This document shows positions 12,720 through 56,505 of a stretch of 56,505 nt of DNA, in pieces. Location: positions 1 to 56,505 of the forward strand of contig CACLIZ010000005.1 in the NCBI GenBank assembly GCA_902607115.1, in the 5' to 3' direction. The notes under the pieces are model-generated. The model was not told where the DNA came from. It ran no database searches and saw only the letters and a list, made by a program, of their open reading frames with translations. Made by a program: the position numbers and the translations under genes. Numbering within the stretch: position 1 is the stretch's first letter; every line of letters starts with the position of its first letter. The DNA comes from an uncultured Pelagibacteraceae bacterium. GTDB lineage: Bacteria > Pseudomonadota > Alphaproteobacteria > Pelagibacterales > Pelagibacteraceae.

Positions 12720-12929
12720 TTGAATCAACTTATTGTATCTAATTTAAAACCTTCACACTAAATCTGTAAAAAAAGTAAACAAATTTGATCTAATTATTAT
12801 TTATAATTATTTACAACTTAAAATTTGTTTTCAAATAAAGATTCAATCTTAGATTTTATTTTTTTGAAAAAAAATTTTCAATTAGGGATTACATTTTTTT
12901 TTTAAAAGAAAAATTATCATATTGCATAA

Positions 12930-14381
12930 ATGAACTTTTTCAGATTAAACAAAGTTCCGATGAAAAATTCATTAAATCAAAATTTAAATCAAAACGACCA
13001 AGAAGTTTTAAATTGGGAACTAGTTCAAGAAGACTTTAAAATAAAATTTGGAAAAGATGTTTTTGAAAGTTGGTTAAAAAAAATGGATTTATTAGAAACA
13101 AATTCAGATTATTTATTAATTTCAGTACCCACAAGATTCATAAGAGATTGGATTACCTCCAGATATCTTGACAATGTTATTCAAGTGATTAAATCTCATA
13201 AAAAAAAAATTAATAGAATAGAATTTAAAATAAAATCTATTTCTACCAACGAATCTAAAAAAAATAAATTAGATGAGAGCGATCAAAATAATGTGATAGA
13301 TGCAAATGTGGCATTTATTAAAGATTCATTTATTCAATATAACAGAATTGACCCTAATAAAAATTTCAATAATTTTATCATTGGCCCAAGTAATAGTCTT
13401 GCTTATGAGGCATCAAGAAAAATTACAGATAATATTTCCAGCTACAATCCTTTATACTTATATTCTGGTGTTGGAATGGGAAAAACTCATTTATTAAATG
13501 CAATAGGATTAAAGCTTAAAACGACTAAAAAAGTTGTATTTATATCAGCTGAAAGATTTATGTATCATTTTGTGAAATCAATTAAATCAAATGAAATGAT
13601 AAAATTTAAAGATTATTTTCGAAATACCGACGTATTACTTATTGACGACATTCAATTTATGAATGGTAAAGAAGCTTTGCAAGAAGAATTTTTTCATACT
13701 TTCACTACATTGTTGGACAGGGGCTCACAAATTGTTTTAACATCAGATAGACCTCCAAACAAACTGAGTAGAATTCAGGAGAGAATTAAATCTAGATTTT
13801 CAGGTGGTTTAGTTGTTGATATACAGAATCCAGATTTAGCCCTAAGAGCAGAAATAGTTAAAAACAAATTATCTGAAATAAGTTTTATTAATGGAAATAA
13901 TGTTATTATTTCTGAAGAGATACAAAAATTTATATGTTCAGAAATAAAATCAAGTGTTAGAGAATTAGTAGGAGCTTTAAACAGAATTGTGTCTTTCTCC
14001 AGAATATATAATAGAGTTCCCAACCTTTCTGAAACAAGAATTATATTAAAGGATTTATTAAATATTTATGAAAACAAAGTAACTATAGACAATATCCAGA
14101 CAAATGTTTGTAAGTATTTTAAAATAAGCAAAAATGAAATGCTTTCTTCTAGAAGATCTAGATATTTAGTAAGACCAAGGCAAACAGCGATATATTTAGC
14201 AAAAATGCTCACCTCAAAATCTTTGCCAGAAATTGGTAGATGTTTTTCAAATAGAGATCATACTACGGTTATACATTCAGTAAAAACAATAGAAAGACTT
14301 AGAAAAGAAGATAACGAATTAAATTTAAAAATAGATACTTTAAAGAACAAAATTTTATATAACAAAGAAGATGAAATTTAG
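12930..14381 (+). CDS. dnaA: Chromosomal replication initiator DnaA
   Basis: AAA+ ATPase that opens the origin. The 483-residue protein has the N-terminal DnaB-interaction domain (residues about 25-95), a variable linker, Walker A YSGVGMGKTHLLNAIG near 174-189, Walker B VLLIDDIQFM, and a DNA-binding domain whose signature LPEIGRCFSNRDHTTVIHS lies near the C-terminus. Walker A reads SGVGMGKT where GGVGLGKT is usual; the lysine and threonine are intact. The ATG at 12960 (residue 11) is an alternative start. It overlaps dnaN by 11 bases. I see only one weak DnaA-box-like site in the 210 bases upstream, so the origin is probably elsewhere. Confidence 0.97.
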   Translation: MNFFRLNKVPMKNSLNQNLNQNDQEVLNWELVQEDFKIKFGKDVFESWLKKMDLLETNSDYLLISVPTRFIRDWITSRYLDNVIQVIKSHKKKINRIEFKIKSISTNESKKNKLDESDQNNVIDANVAFIKDSFIQYNRIDPNKNFNNFIIGPSNSLAYEASRKITDNISSYNPLYLYSGVGMGKTHLLNAIGLKLKTTKKVVFISAERFMYHFVKSIKSNEMIKFKDYFRNTDVLLIDDIQFMNGKEALQEEFFHTFTTLLDRGSQIVLTSDRPPNKLSRIQERIKSRFSGGLVVDIQNPDLALRAEIVKNKLSEISFINGNNVIISEEIQKFICSEIKSSVRELVGALNRIVSFSRIYNRVPNLSETRIILKDLLNIYENKVTIDNIQTNVCKYFKISKNEMLSSRRSRYLVRPRQTAIYLAKMLTSKSLPEIGRCFSNRDHTTVIHSVKTIERLRKEDNELNLKIDTLKNKILYNKEDEI

Positions 14382-51247: not shown

Positions 51248-52060
51248 ATGATCTATGATTGCTTTTCTTATTGGGATGAAGATTTACTCTTAGATTTAAG
51301 ATTAAATATACTTGATAAATTTGTAGACTACTTTGTTATTGTTGAAGGAAATAAAACTTGGCAGAACAATTCAAAAGAACTTATTTTTGATATAAATAAA
51401 TTCAAAAAATTTAAAGATAAAATCATTTATATTCCAGTTGATGATTTACCAGATGGCAAGAACCCTTATTTAAGAGAAAATCATCAAAGAAATTGTATTT
51501 TAAGAGGATTAAAAAAGGCTCAAAAAGAAGATTTGATTATTATTTCAGATCTTGACGAAATTCCAAATCCTGAAACATTTAATTTATTCAAAAAAGAAAT
51601 GAAATATGCTGTTTTCCAACAAAAGCATTTTTATTATAAATTTAATCTGCAAAGTAAAAATCATCCATTTTGGTTAGGTAGTAGAATATGCATTTTTAGT
51701 GAATTAAAATCACCTCAGTGGTTAAGAGATCTTAAATTTAAAAAGAGACCTTTTTGGAGACTAGATAAAAAAAGATTGAATAATATTTTGCCAAATGGTG
51801 GATGGCATTTTTGTAATTTGAAAACTTTAGACAAGCTTAAATATAAATATGAAAATTTATGCGAAACTAATGACCCTATTGTATTTAATGAAAAAATAGA
51901 TCAAAAATATTTAACTGAAAAAAATATTCAAAATAATATAGAAAATAGAAGAGATATAATTGGAAGAAATGACGAATTTATAAAAATAAATATTGATAAG
52001 TCGTTTCCTCAATATTTAATTCACAATCTAGATAAATATAAAAATGATTGGGTTGCCTAA
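51248..52060 (+). CDS. Family 17 glycosyltransferase (N-acetylglucosaminyltransferase-like)
   Basis: The 270-residue protein opens MIYDCFSYWDEDLLLDLRLN and continues VDYFVIVEGNKTWQN, a typical GT17 start. The metal-binding acidic cluster is D101-L-D-E104 in IIISDLDEIPNPE, and a conserved GGWHFCNL follows near residue 178. GT17 is named for the animal enzyme that adds a bisecting GlcNAc; bacterial and phage members are thought to decorate envelope glycans. Donor and acceptor are unknown. It sits one base after lepA, so an accessory gene is joined to a core translation operon. Its TAA interlocks with the next gene's stop. Confidence 0.82.
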   Translation: MIYDCFSYWDEDLLLDLRLNILDKFVDYFVIVEGNKTWQNNSKELIFDINKFKKFKDKIIYIPVDDLPDGKNPYLRENHQRNCILRGLKKAQKEDLIIISDLDEIPNPETFNLFKKEMKYAVFQQKHFYYKFNLQSKNHPFWLGSRICIFSELKSPQWLRDLKFKKRPFWRLDKKRLNNILPNGGWHFCNLKTLDKLKYKYENLCETNDPIVFNEKIDQKYLTEKNIQNNIENRRDIIGRNDEFIKINIDKSFPQYLIHNLDKYKNDWVA

Positions 52061-52953
52061 TTTAATTTTTTTGGATACAAAATTATCCAATTCATAGTTT
52101 TAGGTCTACCTTCAGACATCATTAGATATTTTTCATCATCCGAAAAATCATCAAGTATATCGAAATCAAAAGGGTTTTTTGAAGTATCCCTGATTTTATT
52201 TACTTTAAAAAACTTATTAATATTTTTATAAAAAATACTGATTTTTCTTTTATTCAATACATTAAAGCTATGTTCCTCAATTATAAAAAAACTATTAGAA
52301 AAATACTTACAAAATTCTTTATTAAATAAATCAAATTCATTACCCTCGATATCAACAAGAAATAAAATTTTTCTTTTATTTATTTTATTTAAATTAATTT
52401 TTAGAGAATGAAAATTTGCTTCATGATGAATGGTAATTTTTTTACTGACTTTGTTAATTTTTGCATTTTTAAATAAAATATTTCTACTTTTTTTCTCTAT
52501 TTCATATGCGAGTCCTAATTTAAAAATATTTTTTTTTATTAAACTGATCAGATGGTACCCTTCAGCTGCTCCTAAATCTACAAAACAAGTTAATTTGAAT
52601 TTTTTTTTTAAAAAAATAATTTTTTCCTGAATTTGTCTTTCATATGTTCCCAAATATTTTGGAGCAAAATCAATATTTGACCAACCATGTGAATTTAATA
52701 ATTTAGTTCCAGAATATGGTCCGAAAATAATTCTTTGTTTTGAATGTTTTTCCAACTTTTTTCCTAAAACTTTTTTTTTCTTTTCAATAAAATTAGATAG
52801 ACCAGTTTTATAAAAATTTTTATTTATAAAATAATAATATACTCCATCTAATCCATTGTTTTGAAATATGGAGTTATATTTTCTAAATTTTTTACTTATA
52901 TAAAAAACTAAAAAGATAAAAAATATTGTTAGGATTGCATATATTAAATACAT
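52057..52953 (-). CDS. Membrane-anchored FkbM-like SAM methyltransferase
   Basis: The 298-residue protein has one N-terminal transmembrane segment (residues 2-19), then a basic region, then a Rossmann methyltransferase: motif I CFVDLGAAEGYH (123-134), LAYEIEKKSRNILFKNA for SAM contact, and FLVDIEGNEFDLF followed by FFIIEEH. The D-x-E-G-x-E element is characteristic of FkbM-type enzymes, which often methylate sugars. A membrane anchor is unusual for the family and suggests an envelope-linked substrate. It diverges from the DUF4956 operon across 86 bases. The exact family is less certain than the fold. Confidence 0.65.
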   Translation of the reverse strand: MYLIYAILTIFFIFLVFYISKKFRKYNSIFQNNGLDGVYYYFINKNFYKTGLSNFIEKKKKVLGKKLEKHSKQRIIFGPYSGTKLLNSHGWSNIDFAPKYLGTYERQIQEKIIFLKKKFKLTCFVDLGAAEGYHLISLIKKNIFKLGLAYEIEKKSRNILFKNAKINKVSKKITIHHEANFHSLKINLNKINKRKILFLVDIEGNEFDLFNKEFCKYFSNSFFIIEEHSFNVLNKRKISIFYKNINKFFKVNKIRDTSKNPFDFDILDDFSDDEKYLMMSEGRPKTMNWIILYPKKLN

Positions 52954-53039: not shown

Positions 53040-53660
53040 ATGGAAGATTTAATATCAATTCTTATTATGATGATTGCGGGTTACGCAATAAGATTTGCAT
53101 TAATATATTCCGGTCAATTATGGGCAAAAACCTTTTCTCAAACTGTATCTTTTTTTATTTTACCAACTATAACTTTCATTATAACCAAAACAATTTATGG
53201 CAATATCGCTCTATCTTTAGGAATGATAGGAGCTCTGTCTATAGTAAGATTTAGACATCCAGTTAAGAGCGCTTTAGAGCTAATTATATATTTTGATTTA
53301 ATTACAATAGGAATTGCGGCAAGTGTTAAAAATAATTATGCAATATTATTAAGTGTTATTACAGTACTTGTCTTGATTGGTCTTAAACTAATTAATAATT
53401 TTTCAAAAAATAATAAAAAAGGTGGTTTTTATAATATTTCATTCAGTGAAGGAATTGATTTAAATCAAATTGAAATTTCATCTACGAGTAAAATATCTTC
53501 TATTGAAGAAAATAAGTATTTAAAATCAATTATAATTAATTCTGAAAGTGGAGAATATATTTATAGACTGGTATTTGAGAACAAAGAAGTATTACAAAAA
53601 TTTAAAAATGAAATAGAAAATATAGATAGTATTAAAAAAATAGATGTTAATTATATTTAG
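53040..53660 (+). CDS. DUF4956 membrane protein
   Basis: The 206-residue protein has about four hydrophobic segments in its first 125 residues and a soluble C-terminal domain of about 75 residues. The motif GMIGALSIVRFRHPVKSALEL, just after the second or third segment, is the hallmark of DUF4956. The soluble part (EYIYRLVFENKEVLQKFKNE) looks like a small alpha-beta fold, but I cannot name it. It heads a set with a CotH-like protein and a VTC-domain protein, both known elsewhere as DUF4956 neighbours. A role as the membrane part of a polyphosphate or phosphoryl-transfer machine is inference. Confidence 0.75.
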   Translation: MEDLISILIMMIAGYAIRFALIYSGQLWAKTFSQTVSFFILPTITFIITKTIYGNIALSLGMIGALSIVRFRHPVKSALELIIYFDLITIGIAASVKNNYAILLSVITVLVLIGLKLINNFSKNNKKGGFYNISFSEGIDLNQIEISSTSKISSIEENKYLKSIIINSESGEYIYRLVFENKEVLQKFKNEIENIDSIKKIDVNYI

Positions 53661-55977
53661 GAAAATACTTCTTATTCTAATTATTCTAACTTCAATAAGT
53701 ATTACTCAAGCATTTAGCAAGATAGGCAAGGAATGTGCTAAACTTAATTTTGAAAATACGCCTTTATTTAAAGAAAAAAAATTAGAATTAATAGACATTA
53801 AAATAAAAAATTATAGAGATTGGCAAGTTAATAATATTAGGATTTTAACTAACAATAGCCATGTTATTCCTGAAAAATTTAAGAAAAGATTTAAAGCAGA
53901 AATTAAAATTTTTTTTTCAGATAATACAAGTTGCATATTTGAGGGAAAAGTCAGAACTCAAGGGGATTTAAAAGATCATATCTTTTATAAAAATGGAAAA
54001 GTTTTTCAGAGTTTAGATGTAAGTTTAAATGATGGACATATAAACAATATTACAAAATTTAAACTTTTTTTAAATGGAACTAGAGGTAAAGAAGAAGATG
54101 AAGTTTTTATGACTGTATTATTAAGAGAATTTGGTTTTTTAGCTCCTAGAACAGAAATAGTTAATATAAAAATAAATGATCAAAAAATAAAAATGTTATT
54201 TCAAGAAAAAATTTCTAAAGAATTTCTAGAATTTAATAGAAGAAGAGAAGGCCCCATTCTTGAAGGGGATGAAAAATATATGATGAATTTTATATCCAAT
54301 GTAAAAAATAATCCTGCAATTGATTGGACAGAAATTTTTAGACTGTCTGATTTAGGTTCTAAGATTCAATTATCAAAACAAACAAATTCAAAATGGTCAA
54401 TCAAAAATCAAACATTTACAGAAATAAGTTTTGATGCACTAAATAAGTTAAACTTTGTATATTTGGTTTATCTCAATAACTATAAAGATAAGAAAAACAA
54501 CTATTCTTTTCTAAATTATAATTTAGATAATATCTTATTAGCACAAAATAATTTTGAAAATTTAAACAAACTAAACATATATAATAATCTTTTATTAGCA
54601 GCAAATGGAGAGCATGGTTTATACGTTCATAACAGAAAATTTTATTGGAATTCAATAGAAAATTATTTTGAGCCAATATATTATGATGGTGAATTTAACT
54701 TAGAAAAAAAGATTAAAAATCTAAATTTTCCTCTAAGTCTTGATTATGAGCAATCCATAGACAGAACTATAGATTTGATCAATTCTCTTGATAAGAAAAA
54801 AATACTTCAAGATATTAACTCTAAAAACTTAATTTTAAGTAAAAAAAAATTAAATAAAAAAATAAGTAATTTAAATGAAAATCTAATTTTAATAAAAAAA
54901 TTATTTAATCAAAAAAATAAGGATGATTTATTTTACAATCTTGAAAGTTATAAAAGTAAAGATTTATTTTATAATTACTTAGAAAATTTGAAAAAGCAAA
55001 AAATCAAGTTCAAATTTGCCGTATATGATCATCTTAAAAATTTAAACTATTCTGACATTCAAATTTGTGAAAATAATATTGAAAATTGCGATCAAAATCT
55101 ACTTTTGGATCCGAACATCAAAAGAGATTTATTAGAAGGAAAGCTAAAAATTGATGGCTTTAACTATCAATTTATCAAAAGCGAAAATAATACATCTAAT
55201 AAATACGAAAGGTTAAGTTTAAACGATAATAATTTTATAGATGTAAGTTTTATTTATAATAGTGGCATAGTGTACAATTACGATAAAGAAAATAAAAATT
55301 TTAAAATAAATCAAATAAATCCAGAAGGTAGAGCATTTTTTATTGGAGGAAAAATCAACAATATAAATATTGAATTTAATGGAAAAGAAAATCAATATTT
55401 AAACAAGCAAATTGTGGAATATGATCATAAAACTTTAACTGGCTGTTTATCTTTTGTTAAGAATATATTTGTTAATTCAAATCTTATTGTGAAGTATTCC
55501 AATTGCGAAGATGGGATAAATGTTATTAGCTCTAATGGCTATATAGACAGTATAGATTCCAAAAATTCAGTTTTAGATGGAATTGATTTAGATTTTTCTG
55601 ATTTATTTATTAATAATATAAAAGTTAATGACTCAGGAAATGATTGCATAGATTTCTCAAGTGGCAATTATGAAATAAAATCTTTTAAACTTTTAAATTG
55701 TGGCGATAAAGGAATATCTGTTGGAGAAAAAACTATAGCAAAAATTGAAAATGTAGAAATTGGAAATGCAGATATTGGAATAGCATCAAAAGACTCCTCT
55801 GAAGTTTACATAAACCAATCAAAAATTTCAGATACAAACAATTGTCTGGCCACATATAAAAAAAAACAAGAATTTGATGGTGGCTTCTTAAAGATCACTT
55901 CTTCAGAATGTAAAAATTTTAAAAGATATAAATTTGAGGATGAATTTTCTAAAATAAATATTTCAAAAGAACTTTAA
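53644..55977 (+). CDS. Exported CotH-like protein with C-terminal beta-helix
   Basis: The 777-residue protein has a signal peptide (residues 1-23, ending ITQA). Its first half resembles CotH-type secreted kinases: GKVRTQGDLKDH and FKLFLNGTRGKEED, then VFMTVLLREFGFLAPRTEIVN and IKMLFQEK, then HNRKFYWNSIENYFEPIYYDGEFNL, a likely metal or ATP region. From about residue 600, short repeats such as GYIDSIDSKNSVLDGIDLDF, NDCIDFSSGNYEIKSFKLLN and AKIENVEIGNADIGIASKDS look like a right-handed beta-helix, as in surface proteins that bind or cleave polysaccharide. It overlaps DUF4956 by 17 bases and is followed at once by the VTC gene. Kinase activity is not certain, since no catalytic residue can be assigned with confidence. 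Confidence 0.6.
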   Translation: MLIIFRKILLILIILTSISITQAFSKIGKECAKLNFENTPLFKEKKLELIDIKIKNYRDWQVNNIRILTNNSHVIPEKFKKRFKAEIKIFFSDNTSCIFEGKVRTQGDLKDHIFYKNGKVFQSLDVSLNDGHINNITKFKLFLNGTRGKEEDEVFMTVLLREFGFLAPRTEIVNIKINDQKIKMLFQEKISKEFLEFNRRREGPILEGDEKYMMNFISNVKNNPAIDWTEIFRLSDLGSKIQLSKQTNSKWSIKNQTFTEISFDALNKLNFVYLVYLNNYKDKKNNYSFLNYNLDNILLAQNNFENLNKLNIYNNLLLAANGEHGLYVHNRKFYWNSIENYFEPIYYDGEFNLEKKIKNLNFPLSLDYEQSIDRTIDLINSLDKKKILQDINSKNLILSKKKLNKKISNLNENLILIKKLFNQKNKDDLFYNLESYKSKDLFYNYLENLKKQKIKFKFAVYDHLKNLNYSDIQICENNIENCDQNLLLDPNIKRDLLEGKLKIDGFNYQFIKSENNTSNKYERLSLNDNNFIDVSFIYNSGIVYNYDKENKNFKINQINPEGRAFFIGGKINNINIEFNGKENQYLNKQIVEYDHKTLTGCLSFVKNIFVNSNLIVKYSNCEDGINVISSNGYIDSIDSKNSVLDGIDLDFSDLFINNIKVNDSGNDCIDFSSGNYEIKSFKLLNCGDKGISVGEKTIAKIENVEIGNADIGIASKDSSEVYINQSKISDTNNCLATYKKKQEFDGGFLKITSSECKNFKRYKFEDEFSKINISKEL

Positions 55978-56505
55978 ATGAGTTTTAGAATAGAAAAAAA
56001 AATTTTTATAAAAAAAATAAATCTTTTTGAATTTAAAAAGACCCTTTTTTCCAATGGGGTTAAAACATTATTTCAAAACAGGAAAGTACAAAGTATCTAT
56101 TTTGATAATAAAAATAAACAAATGTACCTAGACTCTATTGAAGGACTTACTCCTAGAAAAAAAATAAGAGTGAGAAATTATCCAAACACATCTGATGTTT
56201 CTTATAAATTAGAAACAAAAATATCAAGTGTAGAAGGACGACACAAAATAGCGAAGAAAATTTCAAATGATTATTTTAAAAAAATAAAATTTGAGGGTCT
56301 TTTTGACTCCAAATATGGTGTATGCATGCCGTTATTAAATGTAATATATGAGAGAGAATATTTAAAAAAAGATGATATCAGAATAACCATAGACACGGAT
56401 ATTACATATAATATTCACAACAACGAAGTGACTAAAAAAGATGAAAATATTATAGTTGAATTAAAGACTTCAAAAAATAAGGATATTGATGATATTTTTG
56501 AAAAA
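55978..56505 (+). CDS. VTC-domain (polyphosphate polymerase-type) protein, 3' end outside window
   Basis: The frame opens at an ATG directly after the CotH-like stop and is still open at the last base, so 176 residues are seen. The triphosphate-tunnel residues of the VTC/CYTH fold are in place: R4 and E6-K-K (FRIEKK), YFDNK at 41-45, K62-I-R-V-R66, E79-T-K81, Y124-E-R126, R135-I-T-I-D139 and E161-L-K163. In yeast Vtc4 this fold makes polyphosphate from ATP; bacterial relatives are mostly untested. With DUF4956 and CotH-like neighbours it likely belongs to an envelope-linked phosphate polymer or phosphoryl-transfer system. Soluble in the part visible. Confidence 0.82.
   Translation, partial: MSFRIEKKIFIKKINLFEFKKTLFSNGVKTLFQNRKVQSIYFDNKNKQMYLDSIEGLTPRKKIRVRNYPNTSDVSYKLETKISSVEGRHKIAKKISNDYFKKIKFEGLFDSKYGVCMPLLNVIYEREYLKKDDIRITIDTDITYNIHNNEVTKKDENIIVELKTSKNKDIDDIFEK

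What the first reader, a model, noticed from the sequence alone, without database searches (positions are those of the whole stretch)
53040..56505. DUF4956 / CotH-like / VTC gene set: a possible split, membrane-coupled polyphosphate machine
Seen: a four-helix membrane protein with the DUF4956 motif, an exported CotH-like protein with a beta-helix tail, and a VTC domain with all tunnel residues, in tight order (17-base overlap, then 0 bases). Known: yeast Vtc4 couples polyphosphate synthesis by this fold to membrane passage through its own transmembrane part, and VTC, DUF4956 and CotH genes recur together in bacteria without an assigned function. Inferred: VTC makes a phosphate polymer in the cytosol, DUF4956 supplies the membrane path, and the exported protein receives or transfers phosphoryl groups at the surface. 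In a streamlined genome, keeping over 3.4 kb for this suggests real value, perhaps phosphate storage or envelope modification.
Basis: partly seen in the sequence, partly recalled or inferred. Interest (0 to 1): 0.75.

Follow-up and report, generated by a model that had tools for sequence, protein, structure and literature searches.

The report
Probable phosphate-handling gene trio, ocean bacteria
A tiny ocean bacterium carries three neighbouring genes, found together in many bacteria, that look like an enzyme making phosphate chains inside the cell, a membrane partner and an exported kinase-like protein; some relatives add an exported pyrophosphate-splitting enzyme, which hints that energy-rich phosphate is handled outside the cell.

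Summary
At the end of a SAR11 (Pelagibacteraceae) contig lie DUF4956, an exported 777-aa protein and a truncated VTC gene, with a 17-base overlap and then 0 bases. The middle protein is a CotH kinase fold (family profile E 7e-13 to B. cereus CotH; model Z 19.8) plus a right-handed beta-helix. The set is a real unit: in 151 genomes of the genus VTC occurs in 27 and DUF4956 in 24, 23 shared; of 80 named DUF4956 loci 59 hold all three. PelG was found in 0 of 27 carriers of the genus, so this is a stand-alone version of the accessory set reported beside Pel operons. It also occurs in Prochlorococcus. New clue: a family I pyrophosphatase occurs in 5 of 151 genomes, each time inside this cassette and predicted exported (3 genes with export signals, 2 fused to the CotH-like protein). 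VTC residues are polymerase-like at 3 of 4 diagnostic positions. Best reading: cytosolic polyphosphate synthesis coupled through DUF4956 to phosphoryl transfer outside. Linkage is counted and topology predicted; enzyme activity, passage through DUF4956 and the phosphate acceptor are inferred.

The parts
53040..53660 (+). DUF4956 membrane protein, 206 aa: four long helices, a short helix leading into the GALSIVRFR motif (G64 A65 L66 S67 R70 F71 R72 invariant in 46 aligned sequences), C-terminal ferredoxin-like domain
   Evidence: (PF16316, 35 bits)
53644..55977 (+). Exported CotH-like protein, 777 aa, no Pfam match of its own
53644..53724 (+). N-terminal hydrophobic export signal (residues 1-27)
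   Evidence: the only hydrophobic segment found in the protein, residues 1-27
53779..54918 (+). CotH kinase fold (about residues 46-425); Gly107, Glu188 and Asp348 present, conserved in 91/91, 88/94 and 76/78 of the aligned triad CotH rows that have a letter there
55201..55974 (+). Right-handed beta-helix (about residues 520-777) with Asp645, Asp667, Asp670, Asp688, Lys689, Asp717 and Ser719 invariant in 18 of 18 aligned proteins of the genus
55978..56505 (+). VTC-domain protein (triphosphate tunnel fold), 176 aa, cut by the contig end; R4 E6 K8 R64 R66 E79 K81 K90 Y124 R126 E161 K163 present, C-terminal Ser-Lys beyond the end

Best explanation
The three genes form one conserved module that moves phosphoryl groups across the inner membrane. 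In the cytosol the VTC enzyme makes polyphosphate from ATP. DUF4956 is its membrane partner, which passes the chain out or gates its passage. Outside, where there is no ATP supply, the exported CotH kinase uses the chain, most likely as phosphoryl donor, to modify a surface glycan or protein that its beta-helix tail holds. Where present, an exported family I pyrophosphatase splits the last pyrophosphate unit and pulls the reaction. Shown here by sequence, counts or prediction: the unit, correlated divergence, the predicted sides of the membrane, the folds, the mostly polymerase-like residues, and a pyrophosphatase confined to the cassette. Inferred: polymerase activity, passage through DUF4956, polyphosphate as donor, the acceptor.
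For: Linkage: VTC in 27 and DUF4956 in 24 of 151 genomes of the genus, 23 shared (Fisher p 5e-22). 26 of 28 VTC genes have the CotH-like gene on the same contig, adjacent or with one gene between; the other 2 VTC genes are cut at a contig edge. Alphaproteobacteria, 289 genomes: VTC over the cut-off in 5, DUF4956 in 6, 5 shared (the window's own included) and neighbouring (one further VTC row below the cut-off, full of stops, was dropped). 59 of 80 named DUF4956 loci hold all three. Protein distances correlate 0.76-0.90 over 70 loci and 0.90-0.95 over 17 loci of the genus, 0 of 999 permutations as high. Topology. Pyrophosphatase: 5 of 151 genomes, all 5 copies in the cassette; 3 begin with a hydrophobic export signal, 2 are fused to the CotH-like protein; GDGDxxD motif in 5 of 5. 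Another enzyme for cytosolic pyrophosphate, the membrane H+-pyrophosphatase, is found in 17 of 27 carriers. VTC: hydrolytic tunnel enzymes carry an acidic patch; the triad VTCs have R, E, K, K at the four places as I align them, so three of four follow Vtc4. Yeast VTC couples cytosolic synthesis to a basic membrane channel (PMC9911596 passages).
Against: One of the four diagnostic VTC positions is Glu, as in hydrolases (91 of 92). DUF4956 has no recognised channel fold; its weak matches are regulatory-type domains. I know of no CotH that uses polyphosphate; B. subtilis CotH is an ATP kinase (recalled). The pyrophosphatase was not seen in 23 of 28 cassettes of the genus, many of them cut by contig ends, nor in any of the 80 named loci, so it is not essential. 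In one carrier with it (G066, 77% complete) no H+-pyrophosphatase was found. In S. intermedius no change was reported for the deletion of the polyphosphate-polymerase gene SIR_1593, while deletions of SIR_1592 and SIR_1594 moved Pel in opposite directions. No Pho-box-like site stands out upstream: mean best score 8.5 against 8.7 in shuffles, 25 genes.
Confidence: 0.45

Rival explanations
1. The trio is an accessory or regulatory module of surface-polysaccharide production: the CotH domain modifies the polysaccharide or its export machinery, DUF4956 with its ACT-like domain senses a signal, and VTC supplies or senses phosphate. Polyphosphate export is not involved.
For: The set sits beside pelDEADAFG in streptococci, clostridia and bifidobacteria (PMC7112168 passages); deletions of SIR_1592 and SIR_1594 change Pel and aggregation in S. 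intermedius; PelG and CotH are fused in three Paenibacillus loci; some SAR11 cassettes lie among glycosyltransferase and sugar-nucleotide genes; the beta-helix resembles polysaccharide-acting enzymes.
Against: PelG in 0 of 27 SAR11 carriers, most of them incomplete genomes, and in 5 of 37 other DUF4956 genomes tested (37 of the 80 loci were given). No glycan family recurs beside the trio: among 102 flanking proteins, glycosyltransferase family 2 in 2, PelG in 1, DUF2194 in 3, GGDEF in 2. One SAR11 group has the cassette between ilvC and leuA/mreBCD. It does not explain an exported pyrophosphatase.
Confidence: 0.3
2. The exported pyrophosphatase and the trio serve phosphate scavenging: the enzyme releases phosphate from environmental pyrophosphate or polyphosphate, and the trio stores or senses phosphate. 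The link is shared ecology, not one reaction path.
For: SAR11 and Prochlorococcus dominate waters with a few nanomoles of phosphate per litre and hold a labile extracellular phosphate pool (PMC4525184 passages). One alphaproteobacterial DUF4956-VTC pair is followed by a PHO4 phosphate transporter.
Against: The pyrophosphatase is fused to the CotH-like protein in two loci and was not found away from the trio in 151 genomes. No Pho-box-like enrichment. Most of the 80 named loci come from other habitats, gut and rumen among them.
Confidence: 0.12
3. The VTC protein is a tripolyphosphatase or other tunnel enzyme, and DUF4956 is a regulator; the trio is a cytosolic phosphate sensor that controls an exported protein.
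For: Conserved Glu6 matches one acidic-patch Glu of hydrolytic tunnel enzymes. DUF4956 ends in a ferredoxin-like, ACT-type domain.
Against: Three of four patch positions are basic as in Vtc4, and the Lys-458-type lysine is present in 93 of 93 sequences that reach it. All 10 PDB sequences matched by the VTC profile are VTC proteins. A sensor does not need an exported pyrophosphatase.
Confidence: 0.13

Closest known systems
CotH - polyphosphate polymerase - DUF4956 (- DUF4832) accessory genes of Gram-positive pel operons (PMC7112168; S. intermedius SIR_1592-1594, PMC12345266)
   Same: The same three protein families in one contiguous group; in S. intermedius a secreted CotH protein, a four-segment membrane protein with an intracellular ACT-like domain (SIR_1592; its identity with DUF4956 is my inference from the two papers) and a polyphosphate polymerase domain
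   Different: Stand-alone here: PelG in 0 of 27 SAR11 carriers; the CotH protein carries a beta-helix where SIR_1594 has an FN3 domain; an exported pyrophosphatase is added in 5 cassettes; marine hosts
Yeast VTC complex (Vtc1/Vtc3/Vtc4)
   Same: VTC tunnel domain with matching tunnel residues; a cytosolic enzyme paired with a membrane protein
   Different: The membrane part is a separate protein with no match to the VTC membrane domain in the sequence and Foldseek searches run; no hydrophobic segment in 4 VTC ORFs examined; no SPX match; an exported kinase is added
B. cereus / B. subtilis CotH spore-coat kinase
   Same: Fold and profile match; conserved Gly, Glu and Asp
   Different: Predicted exported or membrane-anchored; beta-helix tail; about 15% identity; the window member matches no Pfam family
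Acidocalcisomal pyrophosphatase beside VTC in trypanosomatids
   Same: A family I pyrophosphatase on the far side of a membrane that carries a VTC polymerase (this setting is recalled); L074's enzyme matches 5c5v at E 4e-13
   Different: Other soluble pyrophosphatases match better (E 1e-17), so this is an analogy, not descent; only in related SAR11 cassettes, not seen in the window

Membership tests
VTC domain / polyphosphate polymerase (PF09359) | Match over the curated cut-off | tested here: met
   63.4 bits against 23
VTC domain / polyphosphate polymerase (PF09359) | Tunnel residues of Vtc4 incl. the metal Glu and basic residues | tested here: met
   R64 R66 K81 K90 R126 R135 E161 K163 present in the window and invariant in the aligned rows that have a letter there; Vtc4 numbering recalled
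VTC domain / polyphosphate polymerase (PF09359) | C-terminal catalytic Lys (Lys-458 of Vtc4) | not testable with these tools
   Beyond the contig end in the window; Ser-Lys in 93 of 93 relatives that reach it
VTC domain / polyphosphate polymerase (PF09359) | Basic residues instead of the hydrolase acidic patch | tested here: inconclusive
   R, E, K, K at the four positions: three basic, one Glu; register of the first strand inferred
VTC domain / polyphosphate polymerase (PF09359) | ATP-dependent polyphosphate synthesis | not testable with these tools
   Needs an enzyme assay
CotH kinase (PF08757) | Pfam match of the window protein | tested here: not met
   0 families for the window protein; 2 of 18 family members match
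CotH kinase (PF08757) | Profile relationship and fold | tested here: met
   E 7.4e-13 to 5jd9; Z 19.8, 305 residues; Foldseek E 2e-8 to 5jda
CotH kinase (PF08757) | Conserved Asp aligned with the WDYD of 5jd9 | tested here: met
   Asp348 in the window, invariant in 18 aligned proteins, 76 of 78 over all triad CotH rows; its equivalence to B. subtilis Asp228 was not tested
CotH kinase (PF08757) | Kinase activity | not testable with these tools
   Needs an assay
DUF4956 (PF16316) | Match over the curated cut-off | tested here: met
   35 against 30.6 bits
Pel-associated CotH/PPP/DUF4956 set | The three families contiguous | tested here: met
Pel-associated CotH/PPP/DUF4956 set | Linked pelDEADAFG operon (PelG) | tested here: not met
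   PelG in 0 of 27 SAR11 carriers, among them the window's incomplete genome and one complete genome, G012
Eukaryotic VTC complex | VTC fused to SPX and membrane domains | tested here: not met
   Only VTC found by Pfam in the truncated window gene; no hydrophobic segment in 4 VTC ORFs, the window included
Family I soluble pyrophosphatase (related cassettes only) | Pfam match and metal-binding GDGDxxD motif | tested here: met
   5 genes in 5 genomes, 101.6-116.1 bits, motif in 5 of 5; none found in the window's incomplete genome

The most novel reading that the evidence does not exclude
The exported CotH proteins are kinases fuelled across the membrane by polyphosphate: a cell builds the chain inside from ATP, threads it out through DUF4956, and spends it outside, ending in pyrophosphate that an exported pyrophosphatase removes. 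In those SAR11 and Prochlorococcus cells that carry the set, the outward polyphosphate would also be a molecular candidate for the labile extracellular phosphate buffer measured in these two groups, whose chemical nature is not stated in the passages I read.
Probability: 0.18. Interest if true: 0.88.

Novelty: new variant of a known kind. Interest (0 to 1): 0.62.

Why it matters
Extracytoplasmic kinases need an energy-rich phosphate where ATP is lacking; a polyphosphate-fed kinase would be a new solution. The trio is widespread, from gut Firmicutes to SAR11 and Prochlorococcus, yet no biochemical function is assigned to it in the papers I saw. It also offers a testable genetic handle on how some small ocean bacteria might keep phosphate outside the cell.

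Tried and rejected
Middle protein in viral contigs: 33 pattern stretches, none a relative. Natural fusions between VTC, DUF4956 and CotH among the ORFs held: none; only CotH with pyrophosphatase, in 2 ORFs. Replacement of polyphosphate kinase: PPK1 in 47 of 151 genomes of the genus (46 over the cut-off) and in 5 of the 27 carriers, no significant exclusion (Fisher p 0.17); PPK2 was not tested. Pho regulation: no Pho-box enrichment upstream of 25 DUF4956 genes. Recurrent neighbour outside SAR11: 102 of 203 listed flanking proteins were scanned; the commonest domains were response regulator 5 and MBOAT 4. DUF4956 against solved structures: no sequence match better than E 0.033 and no Foldseek match at E <= 0.001. 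The phrases for periplasmic, exported, secreted or extracellular pyrophosphatase: 0 papers in the held library. Contamination of the Prochlorococcus cells: L106 is flanked by aroQ, a miaE-like gene, cobI, dusB, der and two tRNA genes, and another trio lies on a 1,898,947-base contig of the same genus (L210), so contamination is unlikely.

Weaknesses of the counts: the divergence test had no unlinked housekeeping gene as control, so part of the correlation may be shared ancestry; L102 (named set) appears to be the same record as L081 (G096), as contig length and sequence ends agree, so one locus is counted in both sets and twice. The 80 named loci are the best of more than 588 pattern stretches for a SAR11 query, not a random sample. 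Of the 12 of 80 without VTC most end at a contig edge; L146 does not, and lacks VTC in the 16 kb held. Export signals were judged by hydropathy, not by a signal-peptide predictor; two Prochlorococcus CotH-like proteins passed the threshold but not that.
Full report
WHAT IS THERE. Three + strand genes close the contig: DUF4956 (53040-53660), a 777-aa exported protein (53644-55977) and a VTC gene cut at 176 aa by the contig end (55978-56505); overlap 17 bases, then 0. Upstream stand a GT17 glycosyltransferase (51248-52060) and, on the other strand, a gene without a match over any cut-off (52057-52953). The genome is incomplete (892,538 bases in 42 contigs, 69% complete). The closest named loci are SAR11/Pelagibacteraceae cells.

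THE MIDDLE PROTEIN. Alone it matches no Pfam or NCBIfam family. Eighteen proteins of the genus (A1) give a profile that finds the B. cereus CotH kinase at E 7.4e-13; 2 of 18 members match Pfam CotH, 2 Beta_helix and 2 Pyrophosphatase. A model of the window protein (pLDDT 79.9, pTM 0.80) matches CotH 5jd9 over residues 46-422 (Z 19.8, rmsd 4.0, 305 aligned) and, over about 520-777, right-handed beta-helices of tailspikes, AlgE/AlgG epimerases and polygalacturonases (Z 17-21); Foldseek ranks 5jda first (E 2e-8). Asp348 is conserved in 76 of 78 triad CotH rows with a letter there, Gly107 in 91 of 91, Glu188 in 88 of 94. Seven of the ten invariant columns of the genus alignment lie in the beta-helix: Asp645, 667, 670, 688, Lys689, Asp717, Ser719. 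They may bind a cation or an anionic polymer or be catalytic (inference).

THE SET IS A UNIT. In 151 genomes of the genus VTC is in 27 and DUF4956 in 24, 23 shared (Fisher p 5e-22). Of 28 VTC genes, 26 have a CotH-like gene on the same contig, adjacent or with one gene between; the other 2 are cut at contig edges. 18 of 28 have DUF4956 on the same contig; in the other 10 the contig ends inside the CotH or VTC gene. The usual order is DUF4956-CotH-VTC; L070 has DUF4956-VTC-CotH and L073 a divergent VTC. The one DUF4956 genome without VTC (G171) has two DUF4956 copies on one contig, at least one beside a Lon protease gene. Among 289 Alphaproteobacteria VTC passes its cut-off in 5 and DUF4956 in 6; 5 are shared, the window's own among them, and neighbouring. 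In the 14 named control genomes the same three ring for both families. Of the 80 best named DUF4956 loci, 68 hold VTC, 67 a CotH domain and 59 all three; they come from Firmicutes, Bacteroidetes, Verrucomicrobia and others. Protein distances correlate: VTC-DUF4956 0.90, VTC-CotH 0.76, DUF4956-CotH 0.76 over 70 loci; 0.91, 0.895 and 0.95 over 17 loci of the genus; 0 of 999 permutations each (no housekeeping control). In two other alphaproteobacteria the VTC-DUF4956 pair stands without a detected CotH within the stretch held (L211, L214); in L214 a PHO4 phosphate transporter follows.

OUTSIDE THE PEL LOCUS. The set was described beside pelDEADAFG in streptococci, clostridia and bifidobacteria (PMC7112168, passages). 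In S. intermedius, deletion of SIR_1592 (four membrane segments and an ACT-like domain; by elimination the DUF4956 gene, my inference) raised Pel, deletion of SIR_1594 (CotH) lowered it, and both cut aggregation in artificial sputum by more than half; no change is reported for SIR_1593 (polyphosphate polymerase domain). The authors did not find the three-gene arrangement outside the Pel locus (PMC12345266, section 20 and passages). Here PelG was found in 0 of 27 SAR11 carriers, one of them a complete genome, and in 5 of 37 other DUF4956 genomes tested. In three Paenibacillus loci PelG and CotH are one protein; an LLSAC-like lipobox motif stands between the two domains, in a further hydrophobic segment that passed the threshold in 2 of the 3.

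A NEW CLUE: EXPORTED PYROPHOSPHATASE. A family I inorganic pyrophosphatase occurs in 5 of 151 genomes of the genus, and all 5 copies lie in the trio cassette: fused behind the beta-helix of the CotH-like protein in L075 and L091, between CotH and VTC in L068 and L074, before DUF4956 in L072. The three separate proteins begin with a hydrophobic export signal; so does the fusion in L075, while that of L091 is cut by the contig end. The GDGDxxD motif is present in 5 of 5. A membrane H+-pyrophosphatase is found in 17 of 27 carriers; of the 10 without, 9 are under 85% complete and one (G009) is 92% complete. The window's own cassette, as far as it is sequenced, has no pyrophosphatase. The pyrophosphatase profile found none in the 80 named loci. 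So in some SAR11 cassettes a phosphoanhydride-splitting enzyme was recruited, as predicted, to the outer side of this machine.

VTC: POLYMERASE OR HYDROLASE. The 10 PDB sequences matched by the VTC profile are all VTC proteins, Vtc4 first (3g3q E 3.3e-15). PMC4641920 (passages) reports that a plant tripolyphosphatase carries Glu at four positions where Vtc4 has basic residues, and calls Lys-458 of Vtc4 catalytic. The triad VTCs have R (92 of 92), E (91 of 92), K (93 of 93) and K (94 of 94) there, and Ser-Lys at the end in 93 of 93. The matching of positions, above all in the first strand, is my inference. This leans to polymerase but does not prove it.

TOPOLOGY. Four VTC ORFs examined, the window included, have no hydrophobic segment. 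84 of 96 CotH-like ORFs have one near the N-terminus; of the 12 misses 6 are cut at a contig edge, 2 look like signals below the threshold, and 4 lack one. DUF4956 has four long helices and a C-terminal ferredoxin-like domain (pLDDT 88.4, pTM 0.66), whose best but weak matches are Lrp- and ACT-like. It may be a path, a gate or a sensor.

MECHANISM. The simplest account of a cytosolic VTC, a membrane partner, an outside kinase and, in some, an outside pyrophosphatase is outward polyphosphate that the kinase uses where ATP is lacking. Yeast VTC gives the precedent for coupling synthesis to translocation (PMC9911596, passages). Zubkov et al. (PMC4525184, passages) measured a labile extracellular phosphate buffer in SAR11 and Prochlorococcus and state that neither stores polyphosphates. 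The trio occurs in both groups: VTC in 27 of 151 genomes of the SAR11 genus and in 2 of 41 genomes of one Prochlorococcus genus, the second with the whole trio on a 1.9-Mb contig; of three Prochlorococcus records in the named set two hold the whole trio and one ends inside DUF4956. Such patchiness means it cannot be the general basis of that buffer.

LIMITS. Ten paper searches were made; DUF4956 is named in 3 papers of the held library. I saw passages of PMC7112168, PMC2879425, PMC12345266 (plus its section 20), PMC8250860, PMC7821199, PMC4525184, PMC9911596 and PMC4641920, and search listings of the rest. Preprints and most subscription papers are not in that library.

Noticed in passing
L115:4089-7199, L122:4086-7193, L153:3836-7102: PelG exporter and CotH kinase fused in one protein in three Paenibacillus records, with a lipobox-like motif between them.
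   Followed up: partly
L106:2245-5717 and L210:5922-9393: The trio in Prochlorococcus genomes; in L106 about 0.7 kb from tRNA-Thr and tRNA-Tyr genes and near aroQ, cobI, dusB and der, which suggests a genomic-island insertion.
   Followed up: partly
L214:6621-9772: DUF4956-VTC pair without a detected CotH, followed by a PHO4 phosphate transporter.
   Followed up: no
L067, L068, L069, L083 (flanks): In one SAR11 group the cassette follows the ilvC gene; in three of these loci leuA and mre genes follow it, so its chromosomal place varies between strains (families scanned in L067 and L068, the rest by clustering).
   Followed up: partly
G067:C15:13873-14404: PPK1 match in two pieces with one in-frame TAG in a genome that carries the trio and the fused pyrophosphatase: perhaps a decayed polyphosphate kinase gene or a sequencing error.
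   Followed up: no
L098:675-1373 and 12899-13597: DUF4956 copies of equal score at both ends of a 14-kb contig in opposite orientation, at least one beside a Lon protease gene: possibly an assembly artefact, and a DUF4956 without VTC.
   Followed up: no
window 51248-52060 (+) and 52057-52953 (-): GT17 glycosyltransferase and a gene without confident family between an elongation-factor-4-like gene (recognised by eye) and the trio, in the window's lowest-GC 4-kb block (0.22), as in a variable island.
   Followed up: no
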